Of a stretch of 45,160 bases of DNA, positions 2 to 45,057 are shown in pieces. The stretch spans positions 1-45,160 of the IMG/VR virus record IMGVR_UViG_3300013138_000011. One strand, 5' to 3'. The notes beneath the pieces are model-generated. The model saw nothing but the letters and a program-made list of their open reading frames with translations. It was not told where the DNA came from and made no database searches. A program made the position numbers and the translations under genes. Source of the stretch: a virus. Numbering within the stretch: position 1 is the stretch's first letter; each line of letters begins with the position of its first letter.

Positions 2-3000
2 GATGTATCTGTATTCAATCCATCTCCTACTAATTCACAAGCAATTGCAGATGTAGTTATTAACTTCCCTGATTCTTCAGATTTCATGTACCCTGGTGCT
101 ACTTATGTTGGTGCATTATTCTTAGATCCAATTTCACAAGGACTTGTTGAAACCGAACATTTAACAATACTTGAAGAAATTTCAACAAATATATTTGTTA
201 CTCCATATGATACTTCTAATTCAACTTTGATATTCAGAATGGTTGGAGAAGAAGATGTTATACAATTCTTTGATGTAGACCCACATTCACAAGAAGTTAT
301 ATGGACAGATGAAATAATTTATGACGTTAGCCAATATCAATTAAATCAAGGAATTCAATTAAACATTGGATTTAGATCAGATGACGAGGGTGTTTATGAA
401 AGAAAAATCGTTGCATATCATCGTATTGGAGATACTGATATGCCTCTTTTAGAAATTATTGTAAATGCCCAATCAATAGGACAGGATGAACGTTTCGATA
501 CATTACTCGAAAACTTTGGATTATTTAAACCTAAATCAATACCTACATTATTTAAAGAAGCTGACATTAACGAAGATATGCCTGATTGGCAATTATTAAA
601 TTATAAAGCAAAACATATCATATTAGAGCATGATAAGATCATGCCATTTATTGGAACGTACAAAGGGCTTATAAATGCTATCAAATGGTTAGGATATGAT
701 GACATTTATGTGAAGGAATGGTTTAAAGATGTAAAGGAAAGCAAACGAATTTCGCTTTATGTTCCTTATGATGCAGATGGAAGAAAAAGAACAATAAAAT
801 ACTTTACTCCAGAAGAAAGAAAGAATCTTAAAAAATTAAACCAACTATCTCTATGCTATTGTATTACAAGAGAAACTGGTGAAGTTGATGAATGGGGAAA
901 TCCTATTACTGAGAATTGTTATGAATATAATTTGAATGAAATTCTAATTAAGCTTTATTCACTTAAGGTTTGGTTAGAGAAAAATATTATCGGAGTTAAT
1001 GCCCGCATATATGACTTAACTGGTGAAGGTGTTTATTTTGAAATATATAGAAACCTAATCTATGGTACTTCAAATATCGGAACAGAAGCTCTTTATGAAC
1101 AATCACTAACACCAACATCAGTTAATCCAGATTCTGAATTAGTAGCTGGAGATGCAAGTATGTTGTTAACTTTAAAGGAGTACAACCAACTGAATACTAT
1201 TCAAGATATAAATTGTACATTATTAGAATTAGCAAGATTTGGGTGGGATCCATGCAATGGATTATTTTCTCCGGTAGATTATTATGATTTACCTTATGTG
1301 GATCCTTCAGCAGTGTTCTTTGGGTCTCCATTTATTGCTCCATTTAAAGATCTTTATGATATTCAATGGAAAGTTACTGTTGAAAAACAATACGGGGTTT
1401 TAACTAGCCATTTTGTAACTAATCCATTATTCATTTACGAAAATGAGATAAAATTCTATAATACATATGATACATCAACCATATTTAATGATGATGCAAT
1501 AGTTCAAATAAATCAAGGATTTTTAAGAGATCCAAGTATAGATGAATGGGTGAATTCAATTGCGTATTCCATTTATCAATCTGACCCATCAGTTAATTCA
1601 TCATTGGGGTCATTTGTATTTGAATCTTCAATGGGAATAAAACAATACACTTGGCAATTTACATTAATGCCAGATGTAAATCCATTAATACAATATGCTT
1701 TTGACGAAAACTATAAAGCCCCATTATTAACAATTAGTGGGTATAAATGGACAGATGTATCAGGAAATACACACCCATTAGATAAACCATATTATTTGGA
1801 CATAATAGATGGCGGAATATTTATGTCAGTAGATGCATCATCAATTCCTGGTGGTTTATTGATTGGGAATGAAATTCCTATCGGTGATACATCAATTGAA
1901 TATACTACAATTAAAGCAGGATTAGATTTCAATTACGATACATCATTAGATGAACAACAAATAAAATTAAGTGTCATTTATATTGGGCCAAGACTTCCAA
2001 TATTCAATTATGATCCATCAGATGCAGAGATGTTGTATTATGATCCTGCTGCTCCTATTACAGTTGTAGAAGATAATAGCGTTTATCAAATGAATGTTAA
2101 TTATACTGGAGATTACGAAATTCAAATTTATGGATGGAATGGACAAAATAATATGTTCTTCAATATTGGAACTAAACGTTATCCAGTGTGGCAAAAATAC
2201 CCAACCATATTTTCATATCAAGATACATCATGTCTAACAAAATGTTCAAGCATTTTAATTCCTCTTGATGAAGCAAGTACATTAATATATGAAAATCAAT
2301 TTCCTATATTTGATCGTCAAATTCCTCTTCAAGGATTAGAGGTTAAATATGATACTGGGGGAAGACCTTATATTTTAGTTCCTTCAATTACATATTTCCA
2401 AGATGTTCCGGAGCCTGGTTCAATTGCTAGGTTCTATAATTTAACTGAGAGAATATCAAGCATTACACCGCCTAATGTAATGGATATTGACCAAGATTTC
2501 CAAAGATTTTATGAAGGTGATGATATTCGTGTAGTTCATTTTGATAAAGGAAAATATTCATTTATTACAGAATCAAGTGCAAAAATTACATCAATTTCTT
2601 ATGCAGGTGATGTTGCCACTTGTACGATTGATAACCCCCCATTAGATTTTGTCATCGATGTATCAACAGAATGGTACGCGTTAAATGATACACAAAGAGG
2701 AGTTATAAATGGTGTCAATGATATAATTAATAAAACATTCACATGCGATATTTCGTCATATCAATTTGAAGTTGGACAAATAGCCGCTATTCTTATTTTC
2801 GATCATAGTACTGGATATACATATGGATCATCATTTAAAGTTTTAGATGTTGATGGATCAACACATGAATTTGAAGGAGTTGTTCCTGAATTTGTCATTG
2901 ACAATCCAGGAAAATATACCTTAACAGTTAAACATGCTTACTCAGCATTTGGAGATTTCCAAATGGATGTAAGTCATGCACTTGAAAGTGGAAACAATTT

Positions 3001-3409
3001 CCATATTTATTTAGATGACACATATTGTCACCAATATTTCTTAGATGATACATTTGTTTTTGTAAATATTTTATTTGATCAAGATCGTGTTCTAAGACAA
3101 TGGTATGACTCATCAGATAATTTATTAAATTCCGATTTATATGGATTTAATCAATCTATTGAATTAGATATAAGCACATTAGTAATATTTAGAGCTGAGT
3201 ACGATTCCAGCAGTTATATGCTTAATCAAAAAAATATCTGGGAAATTAGAAATCATAATACAAATGATTTGATTATGAGAGTCTATAATCCTATTGTTCC
3301 TTATGTATTCAATGAGGCTGGAGATTACGACATTAAAGTCGAAGCATATGATAAATATGGTAACTTAAAATCGCAAGTATTCGAAGGACTTGTTAAAATA
3401 AATGGATGA
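2..3409 (+). CDS. Large baseplate/tail protein with P2 gpI-like region (5' truncated)
   Basis: The reading frame is open from the left edge, so the N-terminus lies outside the window; the first ATG (86) is internal. Over 1130 residues are visible. About 200 residues in, the stretch FIGTYKGLINAIKWLGYD resembles the tail-protein-I family (P2 gpI, a baseplate wedge protein), where a conserved helix precedes the LGY motif. The rest is beta-rich and repetitive in style. The C-terminus has two PKD-like segments, each with a Gly-x-Tyr core (PGKYTLTV and AGDYDIKV), typical of fibre or adhesin modules. It probably links the baseplate to a fibre or host-contact structure. The last 8 bp overlap the next gene. 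The family call rests on motif resemblance only. Confidence 0.75.
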   Translation, partial: DVSVFNPSPTNSQAIADVVINFPDSSDFMYPGATYVGALFLDPISQGLVETEHLTILEEISTNIFVTPYDTSNSTLIFRMVGEEDVIQFFDVDPHSQEVIWTDEIIYDVSQYQLNQGIQLNIGFRSDDEGVYERKIVAYHRIGDTDMPLLEIIVNAQSIGQDERFDTLLENFGLFKPKSIPTLFKEADINEDMPDWQLLNYKAKHIILEHDKIMPFIGTYKGLINAIKWLGYDDIYVKEWFKDVKESKRISLYVPYDADGRKRTIKYFTPEERKNLKKLNQLSLCYCITRETGEVDEWGNPITENCYEYNLNEILIKLYSLKVWLEKNIIGVNARIYDLTGEGVYFEIYRNLIYGTSNIGTEALYEQSLTPTSVNPDSELVAGDASMLLTLKEYNQLNTIQDINCTLLELARFGWDPCNGLFSPVDYYDLPYVDPSAVFFGSPFIAPFKDLYDIQWKVTVEKQYGVLTSHFVTNPLFIYENEIKFYNTYDTSTIFNDDAIVQINQGFLRDPSIDEWVNSIAYSIYQSDPSVNSSLGSFVFESSMGIKQYTWQFTLMPDVNPLIQYAFDENYKAPLLTISGYKWTDVSGNTHPLDKPYYLDIIDGGIFMSVDASSIPGGLLIGNEIPIGDTSIEYTTIKAGLDFNYDTSLDEQQIKLSVIYIGPRLPIFNYDPSDAEMLYYDPAAPITVVEDNSVYQMNVNYTGDYEIQIYGWNGQNNMFFNIGTKRYPVWQKYPTIFSYQDTSCLTKCSSILIPLDEASTLIYENQFPIFDRQIPLQGLEVKYDTGGRPYILVPSITYFQDVPEPGSIARFYNLTERISSITPPNVMDIDQDFQRFYEGDDIRVVHFDKGKYSFITESSAKITSISYAGDVATCTIDNPPLDFVIDVSTEWYALNDTQRGVINGVNDIINKTFTCDISSYQFEVGQIAAILIFDHSTGYTYGSSFKVLDVDGSTHEFEGVVPEFVIDNPGKYTLTVKHAYSAFGDFQMDVSHALESGNNFHIYLDDTYCHQYFLDDTFVFVNILFDQDRVLRQWYDSSDNLLNSDLYGFNQSIELDISTLVIFRAEYDSSSYMLNQKNIWEIRNHNTNDLIMRVYNPIVPYVFNEAGDYDIKVEAYDKYGNLKSQVFEGLVKING

Positions 3410-28197: not shown

Positions 28198-28457
28198 AAT
28201 ACATCATATGTTTGTTCAAAAATATCTTTCTTACAGGGGTAATACTCTCCTTTAATACCGCGAATTATAACATCAATTTCTGCAGCTATTGCATATGATG
28301 TTCCTTCTAATGTTTTCACAGATAAGGTTCCCATAGATTCATTAACAAAATGATCATCAAAATTATCTCCAAAAGATGCAACCCAATCTCGAACAGGTTG
28401 TTTAAAACCATCATAGTAAATAAAATCGATAATTACCGGTTTCTTTTGTGCTTTCAT
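28194..28457 (-). CDS. Small conserved phage protein (PGDYG-like)
   Basis: 87 residues. The start MKAQKKPVIIDFIYYDG and the end IIRGIKGEYYPCKKDIFEQTY match a short protein common in phages and related to the PGDYG family; the role is unknown. It overlaps both neighbours by 4 bp and lies between the dCMP hydroxymethylase-like and GDP-fucose synthase genes. Confidence 0.75.
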   Translation of the reverse strand: MKAQKKPVIIDFIYYDGFKQPVRDWVASFGDNFDDHFVNESMGTLSVKTLEGTSYAIAAEIDVIIRGIKGEYYPCKKDIFEQTYDVL

Positions 28458-29398
28458 TTTCTTATTTTTTCATAATTTTCAACAAACCATTTATATGTTT
28501 CTTTAATTCCTTTTTCGAGATCAATCTGTGGTTCCCAACCTAATTTTTTTATTTTAGAACTATCCATAAGTTTTTGCATAGTTCCATTTGGGTAAGATTT
28601 ATTCCAAACAACTTCTCCTTTATATCCTACAATGTCCTTGATCATTTTTACAAGAAAACTAATTGGAACATCATAACCAGCTCCAACGTTGATATGTCCT
28701 GGTTCATTATAGTTATGCATTAGAAATATCAAGGCTTCGGCCAAATCATCTACATACAGGAATTCTCTTTTTGGAGTTCCATCACCCCATACTTCAACTT
28801 GAGGAATTCCATTTAGTTTTGCGTCATGAAATTTTCGAATTAAAGCTGGCAAAACATGTGAATTCATTAGAGAAAAATTGTCACCAACTCCATATAAATT
28901 ACAAGGCATCGCAGAAATAAAATTACAACCCCATTGTCTACGATAAGATTTGCACATTTCTATTCCAGCAATCTTAGCTGTCGCATATCCACTATTAGTA
29001 ATCTCTAGTGGAGCAGTCATAAGATATTCTTCTTTAATTGGTTGTGGGCATTCTTTAGGATAAATGCAAGATGATCCTAAAAATAAAAGTTTTTTAGTAC
29101 CATATTTTCTTGCAGATTCTATCACATTTGATTGAATCATAATATTTTGATAGAAGAATTCTCCTGATTGTGTATTATTTGCATGAATACCACCTACCTT
29201 TGCAGCCGCCATAAAAACATATGAAGGCTTGTAAAGCCTAAACATTGTTTCGGTTACATTTTTATCAGTTAGATCTAATTCGTCATGAGAAAAGGTCATA
29301 ATATTTTTATGACCATTATCCTTCAATTTTCGAATAATAGCAGATCCAACTAAACCATTATGGCCGGCAACATAGATCTTACTTGTTTTCCTCATCAA
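28454..29398 (-). CDS. fcl: GDP-L-fucose synthase
   Basis: 314 residues, normal for the Fcl/WcaG family. The NAD(P)-binding loop is GHNGLVG at 12-18, the start of the active-site region is SSCIYPKE near 109-116, and the catalytic Y-x-x-x-K is Tyr138/Lys142 (SGYATAK). VGGIHANN and MPCNLYG are further family signatures. It converts GDP-4-keto-6-deoxymannose to GDP-L-fucose in the cytoplasm. No GDP-mannose 4,6-dehydratase is seen in the window; the phage may carry one elsewhere or use the host's. It links to the GT10 fucosyltransferase at 44203. Confidence 0.9.
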   Translation of the reverse strand: MMRKTSKIYVAGHNGLVGSAIIRKLKDNGHKNIMTFSHDELDLTDKNVTETMFRLYKPSYVFMAAAKVGGIHANNTQSGEFFYQNIMIQSNVIESARKYGTKKLLFLGSSCIYPKECPQPIKEEYLMTAPLEITNSGYATAKIAGIEMCKSYRRQWGCNFISAMPCNLYGVGDNFSLMNSHVLPALIRKFHDAKLNGIPQVEVWGDGTPKREFLYVDDLAEALIFLMHNYNEPGHINVGAGYDVPISFLVKMIKDIVGYKGEVVWNKSYPNGTMQKLMDSSKIKKLGWEPQIDLEKGIKETYKWFVENYEKIRK

Positions 29399-33518: not shown

Positions 33519-33970
33519 GAGTTTAAATAAATATATGCTCTAAGATCCTCGACAATACTATTTGTATTCGGTTTTCCTGGAGACCACCCCAGCAGTGGCC
33601 ATTTTTGAGTTCCAATATGCCAAGAAAAAGATGGTAGTTTTCTAAATTGTGCTACAGAAGGCGCACCCGCATCATATAAATTTGTAGCCTTATAATCATA
33701 AATTGTTACTATATTTCCTAAATCATCTTCTAAAACCCATTCTGATGAAACTTTATACTCATCTCCTTCACTATTTGGCTTACCAAATAACTTAACTAAA
33801 GTTTTATAAGATGTTTCTATTTCTCCGCTTAAGGAAGTTCCATAATCTTTTTTAGGATCAGTTGGTCTGAATGTAGCATCTTTTCTTCCTTTTAAAGAAG
33901 CCAAAACATCTTCTCTAGATTTAGGTTTGAGTAAATCTTCTATGGATTCATAAACTTTTTTAGCTATCAT
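33515..33970 (-). CDS. Single-module protein (leader MIAKKVYE)
   Basis: 151 residues. MIAKKVYE meets SIEDLLKPKSREDVLASL, very like the gene at 5291. The body holds TDPKKDYGTSLSGEIETSYK, then EWVLEDDLGNIVTIYDYK and a strand FSWHIGTQKW, resembling a small beta domain of unknown function. It overlaps genes on both sides by 4 bp. Confidence 0.8.
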   Translation of the reverse strand: MIAKKVYESIEDLLKPKSREDVLASLKGRKDATFRPTDPKKDYGTSLSGEIETSYKTLVKLFGKPNSEGDEYKVSSEWVLEDDLGNIVTIYDYKATNLYDAGAPSVAQFRKLPSFSWHIGTQKWPLLGWSPGKPNTNSIVEDLRAYIYLNS

Positions 33971-35235
33971 GATTGTCCAGTTCCTATTATTGCAACTCCA
34001 CTAATTACGGGATTTGCAGGATTATTTGGTGATGACATTTGTCTTATGTTATCTTTATTCGCCATATCGGCTGCGTTTGGTTGTGATTCGCTTTCATTCT
34101 TTTTTATAGCTTTTCCTGATATAACTGGCATTCCTTGATTTTGATCTGTCCTCTTAATATCATCAGTGACAGTATTGAATGTCATTCTTTCCATCCAATA
34201 ATTCTGACCATAATTTATCATCAATTCTTCACCTTGTTTAATAGGTTGTTTGGTGATAAAATACATTTGTTTTGTAAGCTTATTAAAAGCATAATCAACA
34301 TTTGGTTTTTCAGAGTGTCTGTAAAGAGATCCATAACCTAATACTAAAGCCCACTCATTAGAATCACGATCTATTTCAAAGATCATATCTTTTAATTTAT
34401 CAATGGTTTTGGCCTCTTCTCCTAAAATAACTACTGGGCAAATTTCGATAATTTCACCTCTTGCGAATTGGGTTTTTGCTAAAACTGTACTTTCACCTCC
34501 AGGGCGTTTTGAATATTCAATACGAGCTAAGTTAAAAGTTTCTTTTCTTAAAGCTAAAGTTCCCCCCTTATCTGAAATATGAACAGGCTTTTTGTCTTTA
34601 AACAATTCATCTTCATCAAAAGGATTAAAAAAGTCCTCATTTAAATATTTCATATATTCTTCAAATGTTGGTATTTTTCCTTCACGTAATTTTTTAGGTG
34701 CACTTATCATTTTATGTCTAATCACATCAAAAATTCTATTAAATTCTTTTTGAGTCATGGTTCCCAATATCATTCTCTTTATAGCATTTTCATACTCAAG
34801 AACATTTTCATTATGAGTTATGGATCCTATAAATTTTCTCGCTACTTTTCGTATAGATCCGCCAAATTTTGCTATAGTGTGATCCTCTAGATTTAATCCA
34901 GGAATATATTTATCATTTATAGGTCCTTTTAAATCCATTGCATATTTAGCGCCTAAGAAAAATCTTTTCCAATAATAAGTTGCTTCGATGATAACTTCAA
35001 GATTCTGTTTAACTACCTGTATTTTTTCTTCAGGAAAATTTCCCTTTAAATCATCAATATTTATGCTTCTTAAAGAAGTAATTTTTGATAACTGATTTAC
35101 TTTTTCAAGTAATTGATTTAATACAAATTCAGTTTCTTCAATTTGTTGTCGTTGAAGATCATAAAACTTATTATCGATCTCAGTGAAAAGGACTTTTGCC
35201 CTTTTATAATTTTCAACTGTAGTTTTTAAGCTCAT
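33967..35235 (-). CDS. SET-domain protein (lysine methyltransferase fold)
   Basis: 422 residues. Residues 1-200 are helical. A SET domain lies at about 238-347: TVLAKTQFARGEIIEICPV, then ALVLGYGSLYRHSEKPNVDY (300-315) and GEELMINYGQNYW (335-347). These are the two knot-forming signatures of SET methyltransferases; the usual NHS is RHS here, a change that might affect S-adenosylmethionine binding. A low-complexity Asn/Ser-rich tail follows. The substrate may be a phage virion or host protein; inferred. It sits upstream of module genes in a cluster. Confidence 0.8.
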   Translation of the reverse strand: MSLKTTVENYKRAKVLFTEIDNKFYDLQRQQIEETEFVLNQLLEKVNQLSKITSLRSINIDDLKGNFPEEKIQVVKQNLEVIIEATYYWKRFFLGAKYAMDLKGPINDKYIPGLNLEDHTIAKFGGSIRKVARKFIGSITHNENVLEYENAIKRMILGTMTQKEFNRIFDVIRHKMISAPKKLREGKIPTFEEYMKYLNEDFFNPFDEDELFKDKKPVHISDKGGTLALRKETFNLARIEYSKRPGGESTVLAKTQFARGEIIEICPVVILGEEAKTIDKLKDMIFEIDRDSNEWALVLGYGSLYRHSEKPNVDYAFNKLTKQMYFITKQPIKQGEELMINYGQNYWMERMTFNTVTDDIKRTDQNQGMPVISGKAIKKNESESQPNAADMANKDNIRQMSSPNNPANPVISGVAIIGTGQS

Positions 35236-37622: not shown

Positions 37623-37668
37623 ACAAAACTTTTTGATTTGACCCGTGTATAATAGTCAAACAAATGAC

Positions 37669-37899
37669 ATGGATGTAATATCATGGGTAGCAACAATTAT
37701 TTCAATAATAGGAATCATTTTAAATTCGAAGAAAATAATTTATTGTTGGCCTGTTTGGGTTATCAGTAATATATTGTGGATCATATACTTTGCTTCATTG
37801 GGTATGATCTCTTCTGTTATTTTATGGGTTGTTTTCACAATATTCAATATCTATGGATGGAGAGAATGGTATAAAGATATAAATATAAAAAGAAAGTAA
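37669..37899 (+). CDS. Small membrane protein, PnuC-like
   Basis: 76 residues from the ATG at 37669; a GTG at 37645 would add 8 residues but overlaps a TATAAT-like element. Two or three membrane helices are visible (WVATIISIIGIIL, then CWPVWVISNILWIIYF, then SSVILWVVFTIFNIYGWREW). The pattern with YGW-x-x-W near the end resembles PnuC nicotinamide transporters but covers only about a third of one, so it may be a half-length member or an unrelated small membrane protein. It is followed 3 bp later by the epimerase gene. Confidence 0.6.
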   Translation: MDVISWVATIISIIGIILNSKKIIYCWPVWVISNILWIIYFASLGMISSVILWVVFTIFNIYGWREWYKDINIKRK

Positions 37900-37901
37900 A
37901 A

Positions 37902-38891
37902 ATGTCAAAAGTATTAATCACAGGTGTAGCAGGGTTACTTGGAACCCATTTATCAAGACACTTATTATCACAGGGTCATACTGTGATAGGAATAGATAAC
38001 CTTTTTGGTGGATATAAAGATTTTGTAGATCCTCGAGTACTATTTTTTGAAGTGGATCTTGCAGATCGTCAAAAAGTTGCAGCAATATTTAATGCTGAAA
38101 AACCAGATTACGTTTATCACTTTGCAGCTTATGCTGCTGAAGGACTTAGCCCATTTATTCGTAACTTTAATTATACGAACAACGTTTTATGTTCAATTAA
38201 TGTTATCAATGAATGTTTGAAGAATGATGTTAAAAAATTAATATTCACTTCTTCTATGGCTGTTTATGGTGTTGGTCGACTCCCTTTTACTGAAGATCAG
38301 TTACCTTCTCCAATAGATCCTTATGGTATCGCTAAGTTTACTGTTGAACAGGATATTAAACAAGCTCATAATCAATTCGGATTAAACTTCACGCTTGTTA
38401 GACCACATAATGTTGTGGGTGTGTATCAGAATATTTGGGATCGTTACCGTAACGTTATTGGAATTTGGACTCGTCAAATTCTTAATAAACAGCCAATCAC
38501 TATTTTTGGTGATGGAATGCAGAAGAGAGCATTCTCAGATATTTCATTTTATATGACTCCATTCACAAGATTAATGGAAGAATATGGTGGAGAAACCTTT
38601 AACATTGGTGCCGATAAAGAATATAGAATAATCGATGCTGCGATGTTATTAAATAAAGTAGCTCAAAAATATGGATTTAAAAGCGATATAAAACATCTTG
38701 AACCAAGGCATGAAGTTAAAGATGCGTTCTGTGATCACTCTAAAGCTAAGAAAATGTTAGACTTTGTTGATGGAACAGATCTTGAAAAAGTTATGCATGA
38801 CATGTTTACTTGGGGAATGATGCAGCCTGAAAGAATAGTGAAGACAATCCCTTATGAAATTGAAAAGGGAATGTATTCATTCTGGAAGTAA
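37902..38891 (+). CDS. NAD-dependent sugar epimerase/dehydratase (SDR)
   Basis: 329 residues, normal for extended SDR enzymes. NAD-binding G-V-A-G-L-L-G at 8-14, S-S-M-A-V-Y-G near 117-123 and the catalytic Tyr141-x3-Lys145 (PYGIAK). It resembles UDP-glucose 4-epimerase-type enzymes, but substrate cannot be read from sequence. In this context it may make a UDP-sugar for the glycosyltransferases. Followed at 38905 by the SiaC-like gene. Confidence 0.85.
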   Translation: MSKVLITGVAGLLGTHLSRHLLSQGHTVIGIDNLFGGYKDFVDPRVLFFEVDLADRQKVAAIFNAEKPDYVYHFAAYAAEGLSPFIRNFNYTNNVLCSINVINECLKNDVKKLIFTSSMAVYGVGRLPFTEDQLPSPIDPYGIAKFTVEQDIKQAHNQFGLNFTLVRPHNVVGVYQNIWDRYRNVIGIWTRQILNKQPITIFGDGMQKRAFSDISFYMTPFTRLMEEYGGETFNIGADKEYRIIDAAMLLNKVAQKYGFKSDIKHLEPRHEVKDAFCDHSKAKKMLDFVDGTDLEKVMHDMFTWGMMQPERIVKTIPYEIEKGMYSFWK

Positions 38892-38904
38892 AATAATTAT
38901 AACT

Positions 38905-39273
38905 ATGGAAGTTTTAAGATACTCAGCTCAAGATCGTACTCCTTATCTATTTTTTGATGGTGATAAAGGAGAGCTTGTAATAAGAGGAAGATGTATTCCG
39001 GAAGATGCAAAAGGATATTTTGCAGATCTTCATAATTTGCTGCAGGAATATGAGAAAAATCCTCAAGAAAAGCTAGAAGCAACATTCGATCTTGAATATT
39101 TCAATACAGCCACAGCTAAAGAATTAATGAGCTTGATGGATCGATTTAAAAAATTCCCATCTCATGTTACTTGGTGTTATGAATTAAAAGATCGCGACAT
39201 GATTGATGCTGGAAAAGATTTTGAAGAAATTTTGCAGACAGTTCCATTCACCTTTCAAGAAGTAGAACGATAA
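38905..39273 (+). CDS. SiaC/DUF1987-like regulatory protein
   Basis: 122 residues from the ATG at 38905, just after the epimerase stop. The family pattern is complete: TPYLFFDGDKGELVIRGRCI then PEDAKGYFADL, then FDLEYFNTATAKELMSLM (where SiaC is phosphorylated on a Thr/Ser) and DMIDAGKDFEEILQTVPFTF. In Pseudomonas SiaC partners with a SiaD diguanylate cyclase and is controlled by kinase SiaB and phosphatase SiaA. It is unusual in a phage, which might use it to alter host c-di-GMP signalling; inferred. Confidence 0.8.
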   Translation: MEVLRYSAQDRTPYLFFDGDKGELVIRGRCIPEDAKGYFADLHNLLQEYEKNPQEKLEATFDLEYFNTATAKELMSLMDRFKKFPSHVTWCYELKDRDMIDAGKDFEEILQTVPFTFQEVER

Positions 39274-39309
39274 TGTTAAAAGTAAAAACTTTAGTAAAGA
39301 CAAATTAAA

Positions 39310-41149: not shown

Positions 41150-42340
41150 ATGAAAATAGCCGTTATTAAATTAGGTGGAAGAATAGCCAACGAAGGACAC
41201 GGAGTGACTTCTTTTGAAGCTGTGTCAGTAAGTAAAATGCTTAGTATAGGTGGAGCAAATCAAGTGGATTGCTTCACAAAAATTTCTGATAAAGATATTC
41301 CTATTCCTGAATTAAATGTTTTAGATATTTCAAAATACTATGATCATATTTCAGGAAATTATGAGGCTCTTATAGTTATAAATGGAAATATTAATTTTTA
41401 TGGAGGTGCTGAAACACCTGAACAGCTAATGAACCTCCACATCATAAATAACTTTGATGGAGGCCCTGTTTTCTATATCTTTATAGACACATTGCTTCCA
41501 CTAAAGAATGTATGGGATAGCATTAAAGCTAAGCCCTGGGGTAAGAATTATAGAGAGAAAGATATGCTGATAACTCGTGATGATATTATTTATATCACGA
41601 TGTGTTATGATACTGAAGCAGTATTTCAAATAACACAAAAAACGGGTATAAATCCAAAGAGTGTAGTTTATTTTCCATTTGAAAAATATCCATTCTTTGG
41701 AGAAAGATTAAATTACTTTGGTAAGAAAACTGTTGATCTTATTTATGGAGCTAACAGCTTTAGAAATAAGAGAGAAAAGAAAATGGTCAAATATTACTTT
41801 GATATGCCAACCGACATTAATACAGTCTTCTACGGTAAAATGAAACTTGAAGATTTTAAACCTTCATTAGTTGCAGGAAAATTATATCCAAAATTCGAAG
41901 GACCCATTCAGTATAAAGAAAATCTTGAAAAAATGAATACTGCTATCGCAACTGTTAACATAAGCGATACATTCAATGAAGGAAGGCAATTAAATCCAAG
42001 GGTTTATGAAACGGTTTTAGCAAATGTAGTTTCATTAATGGATATTGATTATGATCCACAAAAGCGTGCGTTTTCTGATCCATTCTTACAGGATTTCTTG
42101 TATGTTAAAAATCAAAAGGAAGTTGTTGAAAAAATTAGACAACTTAAAGATGACGAAGAATTAATGATCGAAGTTCTTAAAGCACAATATGAAGATTCAT
42201 ATATTTCAAAGGAAAGTCTAAGTGCCCATTTTTGTAAGTTAATAAGTGACTTATATTTAGAGAATGTAAAAGAAATTCCGACAATAAATAATATAGAAGT
42301 TGTTGATGTTAAACCATTAAAATCCAAAGCATTATTCTAA
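41150..42340 (+). CDS. bgt: DNA beta-glucosyltransferase, T4 BGT-like
   Basis: 396 residues, close to T4 BGT (351) plus insertions. Motifs match along the length: MKIAVIKLG at the start; Glu23 in TSFEAVS (T4 Glu22); INFYGG near 81-86; Asp113 in FIDTLLPLKN (T4 catalytic Asp100); YFPFEKYP near 174-181; IYGANSFRNKREKKMV near 198-213 (T4 Arg191/Arg195 region); NPRVYETVL at 282-290 (T4 Arg269 and Glu272, UDP binding). It would move glucose from UDP-glucose to hydroxymethylcytosine in phage DNA. It overlaps the next gene by 1 bp. Confidence 0.85.
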   Translation: MKIAVIKLGGRIANEGHGVTSFEAVSVSKMLSIGGANQVDCFTKISDKDIPIPELNVLDISKYYDHISGNYEALIVINGNINFYGGAETPEQLMNLHIINNFDGGPVFYIFIDTLLPLKNVWDSIKAKPWGKNYREKDMLITRDDIIYITMCYDTEAVFQITQKTGINPKSVVYFPFEKYPFFGERLNYFGKKTVDLIYGANSFRNKREKKMVKYYFDMPTDINTVFYGKMKLEDFKPSLVAGKLYPKFEGPIQYKENLEKMNTAIATVNISDTFNEGRQLNPRVYETVLANVVSLMDIDYDPQKRAFSDPFLQDFLYVKNQKEVVEKIRQLKDDEELMIEVLKAQYEDSYISKESLSAHFCKLISDLYLENVKEIPTINNIEVVDVKPLKSKALF

Positions 42341-43481: not shown

Positions 43482-44210
43482 ATGAGTCTAATTAACGAGA
43501 AATATAGTAAAGTTGTCTGCATTTGTTTGAAAGAACGAGATGACAAATATAAATTTATGTTATCCCAGTTTATTAAGCATGATATTGAAGTAGAATGGTT
43601 TAGACCAGTTATCCCTGGGTATGCGGCAAGATTATTAGAACCGTATTGTCAAAAACATAATATAGTAAATAAAAAGGTTTTATTTAATCCTCAATTTCCT
43701 AATGAACTAGGAGCAATGCAATCTCATTATCACGTTATTAAAACTGCTTTGTTAGAAGGAGCAACAAGTTTATTCATATTTGAGGATGATTGCGCTTTCC
43801 ATAGAGATTTTGATAATCTTATTGTTAAATATTTCAATAATGTTCCTGATGATGCAGATGGAATTCTATTGTATTCATATATGGCAAAACTCGAACCTCA
43901 AAATATTCGAGTGAAACCAAGATGGACTAAAGGATTTGCAAGTTGGTCGATATTAGCATATGGAATGAATAGAAAAGCTATGGAGCGCTATATTCAGATA
44001 GCAGATACTCATCCAATGATTGCCGATATAATTACTCTTCATATGATGACAAACGAGAAGTTTAATTTTTATGTGGCAACTCCTCCTCTTGTTATTCCAA
44101 CCAAAATGTTGAGTTCAGATATACGAGGTAAAAATAAGAATTATGACCAAGCACAATTCTTAGGTGGAAATGTTTTTATGCTTGGTATTAATGAAAATGA
44201 TTATGAATAA
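43482..44210 (+). CDS. GT25-like glycosyltransferase
   Basis: 242 residues. NELGAMQSHYHVIKTALLEG, then SLFIFEDDCAFHRDF, is the GT25 (LPS galactosyl/glucosyltransferase) pattern with the E-D-D metal site near 101-103. A helical C-terminal region follows. It would transfer a hexose, typically from a UDP-sugar, to an acceptor such as a glycan or sugar on DNA or protein. It overlaps the fucosyltransferase gene. Confidence 0.8.
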   Translation: MSLINEKYSKVVCICLKERDDKYKFMLSQFIKHDIEVEWFRPVIPGYAARLLEPYCQKHNIVNKKVLFNPQFPNELGAMQSHYHVIKTALLEGATSLFIFEDDCAFHRDFDNLIVKYFNNVPDDADGILLYSYMAKLEPQNIRVKPRWTKGFASWSILAYGMNRKAMERYIQIADTHPMIADIITLHMMTNEKFNFYVATPPLVIPTKMLSSDIRGKNKNYDQAQFLGGNVFMLGINENDYE

Positions 44211-45057
44211 GCCCGATTTAAAAATATGGTTTACAGATTTTTGGCCCGAATGGAATGTCGAAGATTTTATAACCCCGATATTAAATGGACACTTTAACGT
44301 TACTCTTTCTAAAAGCAACCCTGATGTTTTGTTTCATTCTATTTTTAATAGGATGGCTGAAACGCCGAAATTCAAATGCAAAAAAGTTTTAATACTTGCA
44401 GAAAATTGGAGACCACATCAATTTGGTTCTGATTATTCTATTTCATTTGATCCTCATTCTAAAACAAATTTTAGATTGCCGTTATGGCAAATATACTGGT
44501 TAATGAAACCAGAACTAAAAGATAGGTTATTTGAAAGAAAGAGATTAGATACCTTTAAAAGATTCTGTGCATTTACAGTTTCGAATCCATCTAATATGTT
44601 GAGAAACAATCATTTTGATTTAATATCATCATATAAGAGGGTTGATTCTTATGGAAAAGTAAGGATGAATACATTCGAATTGAAAAATGCTACAGAAGGA
44701 AAATATTGGAGAGATGCTAAAGATGAATTCTTTTTAAAACATCCTCATAAGTTCATGATGGCTTATGAGAACTCTTCGTATCCATATTATTCTACGGAAA
44801 AACTTATGGATGCTTTCTTAGTTGGTTCACTGCCAATATATTGGGGTGATCCTAAGATAGAGCAAGACTGGAATCCAAAAGCTTTTATTAATGTGATGAA
44901 ACATCCTGATTGGTTAGATTGGATTAAAACAGCAGATCAAAATCAAACTTTTTGGGAAGAAATGTACTTAGAACCTGTATTTACAGAGGAACAAAAGAAC
45001 AAACATATTGAAAATTTATTTAATTTTGAAAAATGGTTGGTAGAGATAGTATCATAG
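44203..45057 (+). CDS. GT10 alpha-1,3/4-fucosyltransferase
   Basis: 284 residues from ATG 44203 (in ATGAATAA, overlapping the GT25 stop); two other ATGs 12 and 39 bp upstream in the same frame are possible starts. The GT10 core is present: KFMMAYENSSYPYYSTEKLM (183-202), the Y-x-T-E-K motif, then VGSLPIYWGDPKIEQDWNPK at 207-226. It would transfer L-fucose from GDP-fucose. Together with GDP-fucose synthase at 28454 it forms a fucosylation pathway. Acceptor unknown. Confidence 0.85.
   Translation: MNKPDLKIWFTDFWPEWNVEDFITPILNGHFNVTLSKSNPDVLFHSIFNRMAETPKFKCKKVLILAENWRPHQFGSDYSISFDPHSKTNFRLPLWQIYWLMKPELKDRLFERKRLDTFKRFCAFTVSNPSNMLRNNHFDLISSYKRVDSYGKVRMNTFELKNATEGKYWRDAKDEFFLKHPHKFMMAYENSSYPYYSTEKLMDAFLVGSLPIYWGDPKIEQDWNPKAFINVMKHPDWLDWIKTADQNQTFWEEMYLEPVFTEEQKNKHIENLFNFEKWLVEIVS

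What the first reader, a model, noticed from the sequence alone, without database searches (positions are those of the whole stretch)
38905..39273. SiaC-like (DUF1987) protein encoded by a phage
The full family pattern is present including the YFNTATAK region where SiaC is phosphorylated. SiaC controls a c-di-GMP-producing cyclase in Pseudomonas. A phage copy might act as decoy or activator of host surface-lifestyle signalling.
Basis: partly seen in the sequence, partly recalled or inferred. Interest (0 to 1): 0.6.

Follow-up and report, generated by a model that had tools for sequence, protein, structure and literature searches.

The report
Phage-carried copy of SiaC switch protein
A large virus of Bacteroidota bacteria carries one piece, the SiaC switch protein, of a bacterial phosphorylation switch without its controlling enzymes, probably to set the host's own switch; because its likely hosts almost never have c-di-GMP-making enzymes, the effect is probably not c-di-GMP as first guessed.

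Summary
ORF 38905-39273(+) encodes 122 aa of the SiaC family (PF09345, E 1e-26). AlphaFold2 (pLDDT 95.8) matches Pseudomonas SiaC structures at TM about 0.9. The phosphorylated Thr68 sits at the same place. The gene is under purifying selection (dN/dS 0.07-0.13 against an 89% identical copy in a 260 kb phage). That relative has no SiaB kinase, SiaA phosphatase or GGDEF cyclase, so this is an orphan SiaC.
New here: orphan siaC recurs in six lineages of viral contigs, from at least two apparent acquisitions. All seven copies keep Tyr65, Asn67, Thr68, Trp90, Asp96 and Asp98, and none has siaB beside it. In cells 51 of 66 siaC loci do.
The reading 'SiaC in a phage that may act on host signalling' is supported. 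The c-di-GMP part is not. The phage's relatives infect Bacteroidota, and in the matching bacterial class 212 of 395 genomes have SiaC but only 5 have GGDEF. There siaC usually sits beside siaB. The protein also fails NCBI's biofilm-SiaC equivalog cut-off (47.7 of 150 bits).
Most likely role: surplus unphosphorylated SiaC that holds a host SiaABC switch on. Target and output are unknown.

The parts
38905..39273 (+). orphan siaC gene (122 aa, PF09345)
   Evidence: Pfam E 1e-26; AF2 model TM about 0.9 to SiaC; dN/dS 0.07-0.13
39106..39108 (+). codon for Thr68, the residue aligned with the SiaB-phosphorylated Thr68 of P. aeruginosa SiaC, at the N-terminus of helix 2
   Evidence: alignments; helix 68-83 in the model
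37902..38891 (+). upstream neighbour: NAD-dependent nucleotide-sugar epimerase, 13 bases before siaC
   Evidence: PF01370 2.7e-48; phrog_540; same order in L001
39273..39308 (+). 11-codon remnant of a SET-domain gene, overlapping the siaC stop as in L001, where the gene is whole (119 aa)
   Evidence: sequence comparison; SET PF00856 3.3e-12 in L001
39310..39618 (+). downstream neighbour with DUF7448 domain, shorter than its L001 counterpart
   Evidence: PF24240 7.6e-8

Best explanation
The gene makes a working SiaC-type switch protein that the phage uses in trans on a host SiaABC-type phosphorylation switch. In the known system, unphosphorylated SiaC binds the coiled-coil stalk of an output protein and turns it on, SiaB phosphorylates Thr68 and turns it off, and SiaA removes the phosphate. 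The phage brings SiaC alone, so extra SiaC should outrun the host's SiaB, both by occupying it and by adding unphosphorylated SiaC. That would hold the output on during infection. In the likely Bacteroidota hosts the output is probably not a diguanylate cyclase but another stalk protein (histidine kinase, SpoIIE phosphatase or membrane-anchored coiled coil). Shown: family, fold, conserved switch residue, selection, absence of partners in the 260 kb relative, recurrence in other viral contigs, scarcity of GGDEF in the candidate host class. Inferred: expression during infection, binding to host SiaB, SiaA or stalk, and the direction of the effect.
For: SiaC fold and Thr68 kept. Purifying selection. 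No SiaB, SpoIIE or GGDEF in the 260 kb relative, and no SiaB or SiaC-binding-stalk motif by local HMM and motif search in it or in four other viral records. Seven viral copies in six lineages, all without an adjacent siaB, against 51 of 66 cellular loci with one (Fisher p 3e-4, and 5e-4 after collapsing near-identical loci). At least two apparent acquisitions, which points to repeated usefulness. Hosts of related phages are Bacteroidota, and 212 of 395 genomes in that class carry SiaC. Several cellular siaC genes are followed by stalk proteins carrying a motif like the one SiaC grips in SiaD, with different output domains (contact residues from PMC8457831). Phosphorylation logic: PMC7647112, PMC7278518.
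Against: No experiment and no host assignment for this phage. The direction (on or off) is not settled by sequence. Residues at the SiaD contact differ from Pseudomonas (D29R, Y31I, S69A, I71A, R103D), though most of these are also the Bacteroidota norm. Orphan siaC genes also occur in some Bacteroidota chromosomes, so lack of siaB next door is not by itself a sign of hijacking. The 'one clade' test did not reject a single viral origin (p 0.107).
Confidence: 0.45

Rival explanations
1. Dominant-negative decoy: the phage SiaC occupies the stalk of the host output protein, or the SiaA phosphatase, without activating, and so shuts the host pathway off.
For: The fold and the Thr68 region are kept, but several stalk-contact positions differ from Pseudomonas SiaC, and four viral copies have lost the otherwise near-invariant Pro32 (L034, L035, L039, L135).
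Against: Every residue invariant in cellular SiaC is kept in the window copy, including Pro32. An inhibitor would not obviously need to keep Thr68, which all seven copies do.
Confidence: 0.25
2. As first proposed: it raises or lowers c-di-GMP in the host by acting on a SiaD-type GGDEF cyclase.
For: SiaC activates SiaD in P. aeruginosa (PMC8457831). SiaC with an adjacent GGDEF gene exists in some phylum-level relatives (G140 and G148).
Against: GGDEF in 5 of 395 genomes of the class, 3 of them among the 212 with SiaC, and in 0 of 8 siaC-bearing Bacteroidota tested. Sequence is far below the NCBIfam cut-off for the biofilm SiaC. The phage clade is not near the GGDEF-linked SiaC clade.
Confidence: 0.08
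3. Passenger gene with no role in infection, picked up from a host and kept by chance.
For: The adjacent SET gene is deleted in the window and present in L001, so genes here come and go.
Against: dN/dS 0.07-0.13; recurrence in several viral lineages with the switch residue kept in all.
Confidence: 0.1
4. It regulates a phage protein, not a host one, as a small STAS-like binding partner inside the infected cell.
For: SiaC resembles SpoIIAA/RsbV-type STAS proteins that serve many partners (weak PDB matches to RsbV and SpoIIAA).
Against: No stalk motif or SiaB-like kinase found in the phage records searched. Neighbour genes differ between phages.
Confidence: 0.12

Closest known systems
SiaC of Pseudomonas aeruginosa (PA0170; PDB 6kko, 6k4f, 6kkp, 7e6g), part of SiaABCD
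   Same: Same fold over the whole length (TM about 0.9), Thr68 at the start of helix 2, Tyr65, Asn67 and Trp95 (Trp90 in the phage) kept
   Different: About 22-24% identical; encoded by a phage; no siaA, siaB or siaD with it; contact residues D29, Y31, S69, I71 and R103 changed; likely hosts almost always lack GGDEF cyclases
SiaC paralogues of Bacteroidota paired with siaB (PF19788)
   Same: Family signature GRSIPED / DLEYFNT / WxY / DDxDM; up to 42% identity
   Different: The phage copy has no siaB beside it and groups with other viral copies and a small Bacteroidales pair, apart from the main clade
Anti-sigma-factor antagonists SpoIIAA and RsbV (STAS) of partner-switching systems
   Same: Similar overall fold and a phospho-acceptor at the start of helix 2 (PMC7647112; weak matches)
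   Different: No sequence-level membership; no sigma or anti-sigma partner known for SiaC

Membership tests
SiaC family (PF09345 / DUF1987) | Profile score above Pfam's gathering cut-off over the full domain | tested here: met
   93.4 bits against 24.5; profile 3-119 of 120
SiaC family (PF09345 / DUF1987) | SiaC fold | tested here: met
   pLDDT 95.8; TM 0.86-0.92 to all SiaC entries, next-ranked fold at 0.46
SiaC family (PF09345 / DUF1987) | Thr at the phospho-acceptor position in a Y-[LF]-N-T motif | tested here: met
SiaC family (PF09345 / DUF1987) | Thr68 phosphorylated by SiaB and dephosphorylated by SiaA | not testable with these tools
   needs biochemistry
SiaABCD biofilm / c-di-GMP module | Score above the NCBIfam equivalog cut-off for biofilm SiaC (NF038265) | tested here: not met
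   47.7 bits against 150
SiaABCD biofilm / c-di-GMP module | siaA, siaB and siaD in the same operon or genome | tested here: not met
   PF19788, PF07228 and PF00990 absent from the 260 kb relative; neighbours of siaC in the window are other families. The window itself is a fragment.
SiaABCD biofilm / c-di-GMP module | Host has a GGDEF output enzyme | tested here: inconclusive
   Host unknown; 5 of 395 genomes of the candidate class have GGDEF

The most novel reading that the evidence does not exclude
Large Bacteroidota phages have repeatedly taken the central SiaC switch protein, without kinase, phosphatase or output, to override a widespread, unstudied SiaABC partner-switching network whose outputs in this phylum are stalk-bearing proteins other than c-di-GMP cyclases: a kind of host takeover not described before.
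Probability: 0.4. Interest if true: 0.7.

Novelty: new variant of a known kind. Interest (0 to 1): 0.5.

Why it matters
No phage SiaC was found in 50,697 phage records, in the PHROG families, in the viral structure library or in the papers searched. If it works as proposed, it points to SiaABC switches as something phages need to control in Bacteroidota. It also gives a tool to find out what these abundant switches do: 212 of 395 genomes of the class have SiaC, often several copies, with almost no GGDEF. The observation that a SiaC-binding-like stalk is fused to several different output domains makes a testable wiring scheme.

Tried and rejected
Phage relatives by tblastn in INPHARED: no match for SiaC. 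PADLOC: no defence-system match for SiaC or its neighbours. A phage-encoded SiaB or stalk partner: none found by Pfam search, own HMM or motif. One search had no positive control within it, but the same model found SiaB in all eight Bacteroidota genomes. Single viral origin of all copies: not the best tree, at least two acquisitions favoured, but the constrained tree is not rejected (p 0.107). The longer start at 38854 was set aside because it overlaps the upstream gene and is not the start in L001. TAG recoding in the tRNA-rich relatives L034 and L035, which carry a CTA-anticodon tRNA-like gene: coding density rises by 0.06 and 0.035 when TAG is read as sense, against 0.01-0.02 in the other records, but TGA gives as large a rise in L035 and TAG is still used as a stop, so not pursued. 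Literature on SiaC in Bacteroidota found only an unrelated sialidase of the same name.

Full report
Observation. The ORF exists as described: ATG at 38905, stop at 39271-39273, 122 aa. It matches Pfam SiaC (PF09345, formerly DUF1987) with E 1e-26 over nearly the whole profile. phmmer against the PDB finds only P. aeruginosa SiaC with significance (E 6e-6). The AlphaFold2 model (24-sequence alignment, mean pLDDT 95.8) matches the eight SiaC chains first, at TM 0.86-0.92, and the next fold, a SpoIIAA-like protein, at TM 0.46. Thr68 of the phage protein aligns with Thr68 of SiaC, the residue SiaB phosphorylates (PMC7647112, PMC7278518), and begins helix 2 in the model as in SiaC.

Setting. The window is a 45 kb fragment of a phage: baseplate and tail families, a T4-type beta-glucosyltransferase, thymidylate synthase. 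A viral contig of 259,840 bp carries the same region with an 89% identical siaC and has terminase and baseplate genes. Between the two copies differences sit mostly on third codon positions, dN/dS 0.07-0.13. siaC follows a sugar epimerase by 13 bases. In the relative it is followed by a SET-domain gene overlapping its stop codon; in the window that gene is reduced to 11 codons.

No partners. In the 260 kb relative, searches for SiaB (PF19788), SpoIIE/SiaA (PF07228) and GGDEF (PF00990) found nothing, while SiaB and SpoIIE were found in all eight Bacteroidota genomes searched alongside. A SiaB HMM built here and a motif for the SiaC-binding stalk also found nothing in the five viral records searched.

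Other viral copies. Scans of viral contigs gave further siaC genes in L034 (52% identical), L035/L036, L037, L038/L039 and L134/L135, all above the Pfam cut-off. With the window and L001 that is seven copies in six lineages. All seven keep Pro13, Gly28, Arg29, Glu64, Tyr65, Phe66, Asn67, Thr68, Trp90, Asp96, Asp98 and Gly103. None has siaB beside it; 51 of 66 cellular siaC loci do. Phage nature of the carriers: clear for G001; supported for G015 (terminase match, weak sheath-like match, structural PHROGs); plausible for G010 and G011 (dense tRNA clusters, TROVE) and for the L135 record (helicase and PHROG matches); weakest for G013, which rests mainly on IMG/VR's own classification plus PHROG matches. 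Trees place L037 and L039 inside the main Bacteroidia SiaC clade (97/89), and the window, L001, L034, L035 and L135 with a Bacteroidales pair (98/96 without L135, 93/90), so at least two acquisitions are favoured, though a single origin was not rejected (p 0.107).

Hosts. The large protein at 86-3409 is most similar to proteins of Prevotella Lak, Tenacibaculum, Chryseobacterium and Flavobacterium phages, and all cellular hits of the siaC scan are Bacteroidota, so the host is very probably in that phylum; its species is unknown. In 395 genomes of the class of one such bacterium, 212 have SiaC and 5 have GGDEF, three of which are among the 212. This is the main evidence against the c-di-GMP reading. 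In a wider phylum sample GGDEF is common, and there siaC with a GGDEF gene beside it is seen in two genomes.

What cellular SiaC acts on. In P. aeruginosa SiaC grips a stalk helix of SiaD through residues that include R80, I81, S82, D83, R84, Y85 and Q86 (PMC8457831). Downstream of cellular siaC I found ORFs with a like motif (for example LTRIADRNQ, VKVSDSNQ). Its continuation is a GGDEF domain (L042), a histidine kinase (L043), a SpoIIE phosphatase (L048), or only a membrane helix (L005-L015 group). That the motif is the SiaC-binding site in these proteins is inferred from resemblance.

Mechanism. Given these facts, the most likely role is supply of SiaC in trans to a host SiaABC switch. Surplus unphosphorylated SiaC would both act on the output and load the kinase SiaB, so the expected effect is 'on'. 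A decoy acting the other way cannot be excluded. Confidence in host-switch modulation of either direction is about 0.7; in the 'on' direction about 0.45.

Membership. It is a member of the SiaC family by sequence and fold. It is not shown to be a member of the SiaABCD biofilm module: it scores 47.7 bits against the NCBIfam equivalog cut-off of 150 and has no siaA, siaB or siaD. Literature and database searches found no earlier report of a phage SiaC; absence there is limited to those collections.

Noticed in passing
L034:11781-14270 and L034:16324-18057 (contig IMGVR_UViG_3300013126_005437): A viral contig with 15 tRNA genes encodes a major-vault-protein homologue (MVP shoulder and vault repeat; E 8e-25 to vault structures) near a TROVE-domain protein; eukaryotic vaults contain both MVP and a TROVE-bearing protein (the latter from general knowledge).
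   Followed up: partly
window 28454-29398 (-), 44164-45057 (+), 43482-44210 (+), 41150-42340 (+): GDP-L-fucose synthase, an alpha-1,3-fucosyltransferase-like protein, a family-25 glycosyltransferase and a T4-type beta-glucosyltransferase: the phage may fucosylate its DNA, virion or host surface.
   Followed up: partly
window 4754, 5270, 5695, 9652, 10201, 19629, 33949 and others: A recurring short motif, ESxxDxLKPKS, near the N-terminus or inside many unrelated ORFs; 14 hits in the 260 kb relative, 1 in G011, none in 224 kb of bacterial loci.
   Followed up: partly
window 39273-39308; L001:8369-8728: A SET-domain gene just after siaC in L001 is lost by a deletion in the window, leaving its first and last codons; a second SET-domain protein is at 33967-35235 (-).
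   Followed up: partly
L005, L006, L042, L043, L048: Proteins encoded after cellular siaC share a SiaD-like stalk motif but carry different output domains (GGDEF, histidine kinase, SpoIIE, or membrane helix only).
   Followed up: partly
L034:15275-15350; L035:14092-14166: tRNA-like genes with CTA anticodon; no clear sign of TAG recoding in coding density.
   Followed up: partly
L077:2775-3190: A tmRNA-like gene (tag GEQFNEYRIAA) predicted in the 260 kb phage relative.
   Followed up: no
window 37645-37899: An 84-aa ORF matching only the C-terminal part of the nicotinamide mononucleotide transporter family (PnuC); a nicotinamide phosphoribosyltransferase PHROG hit occurs in G011 (L088:1120-2289).
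   Followed up: no
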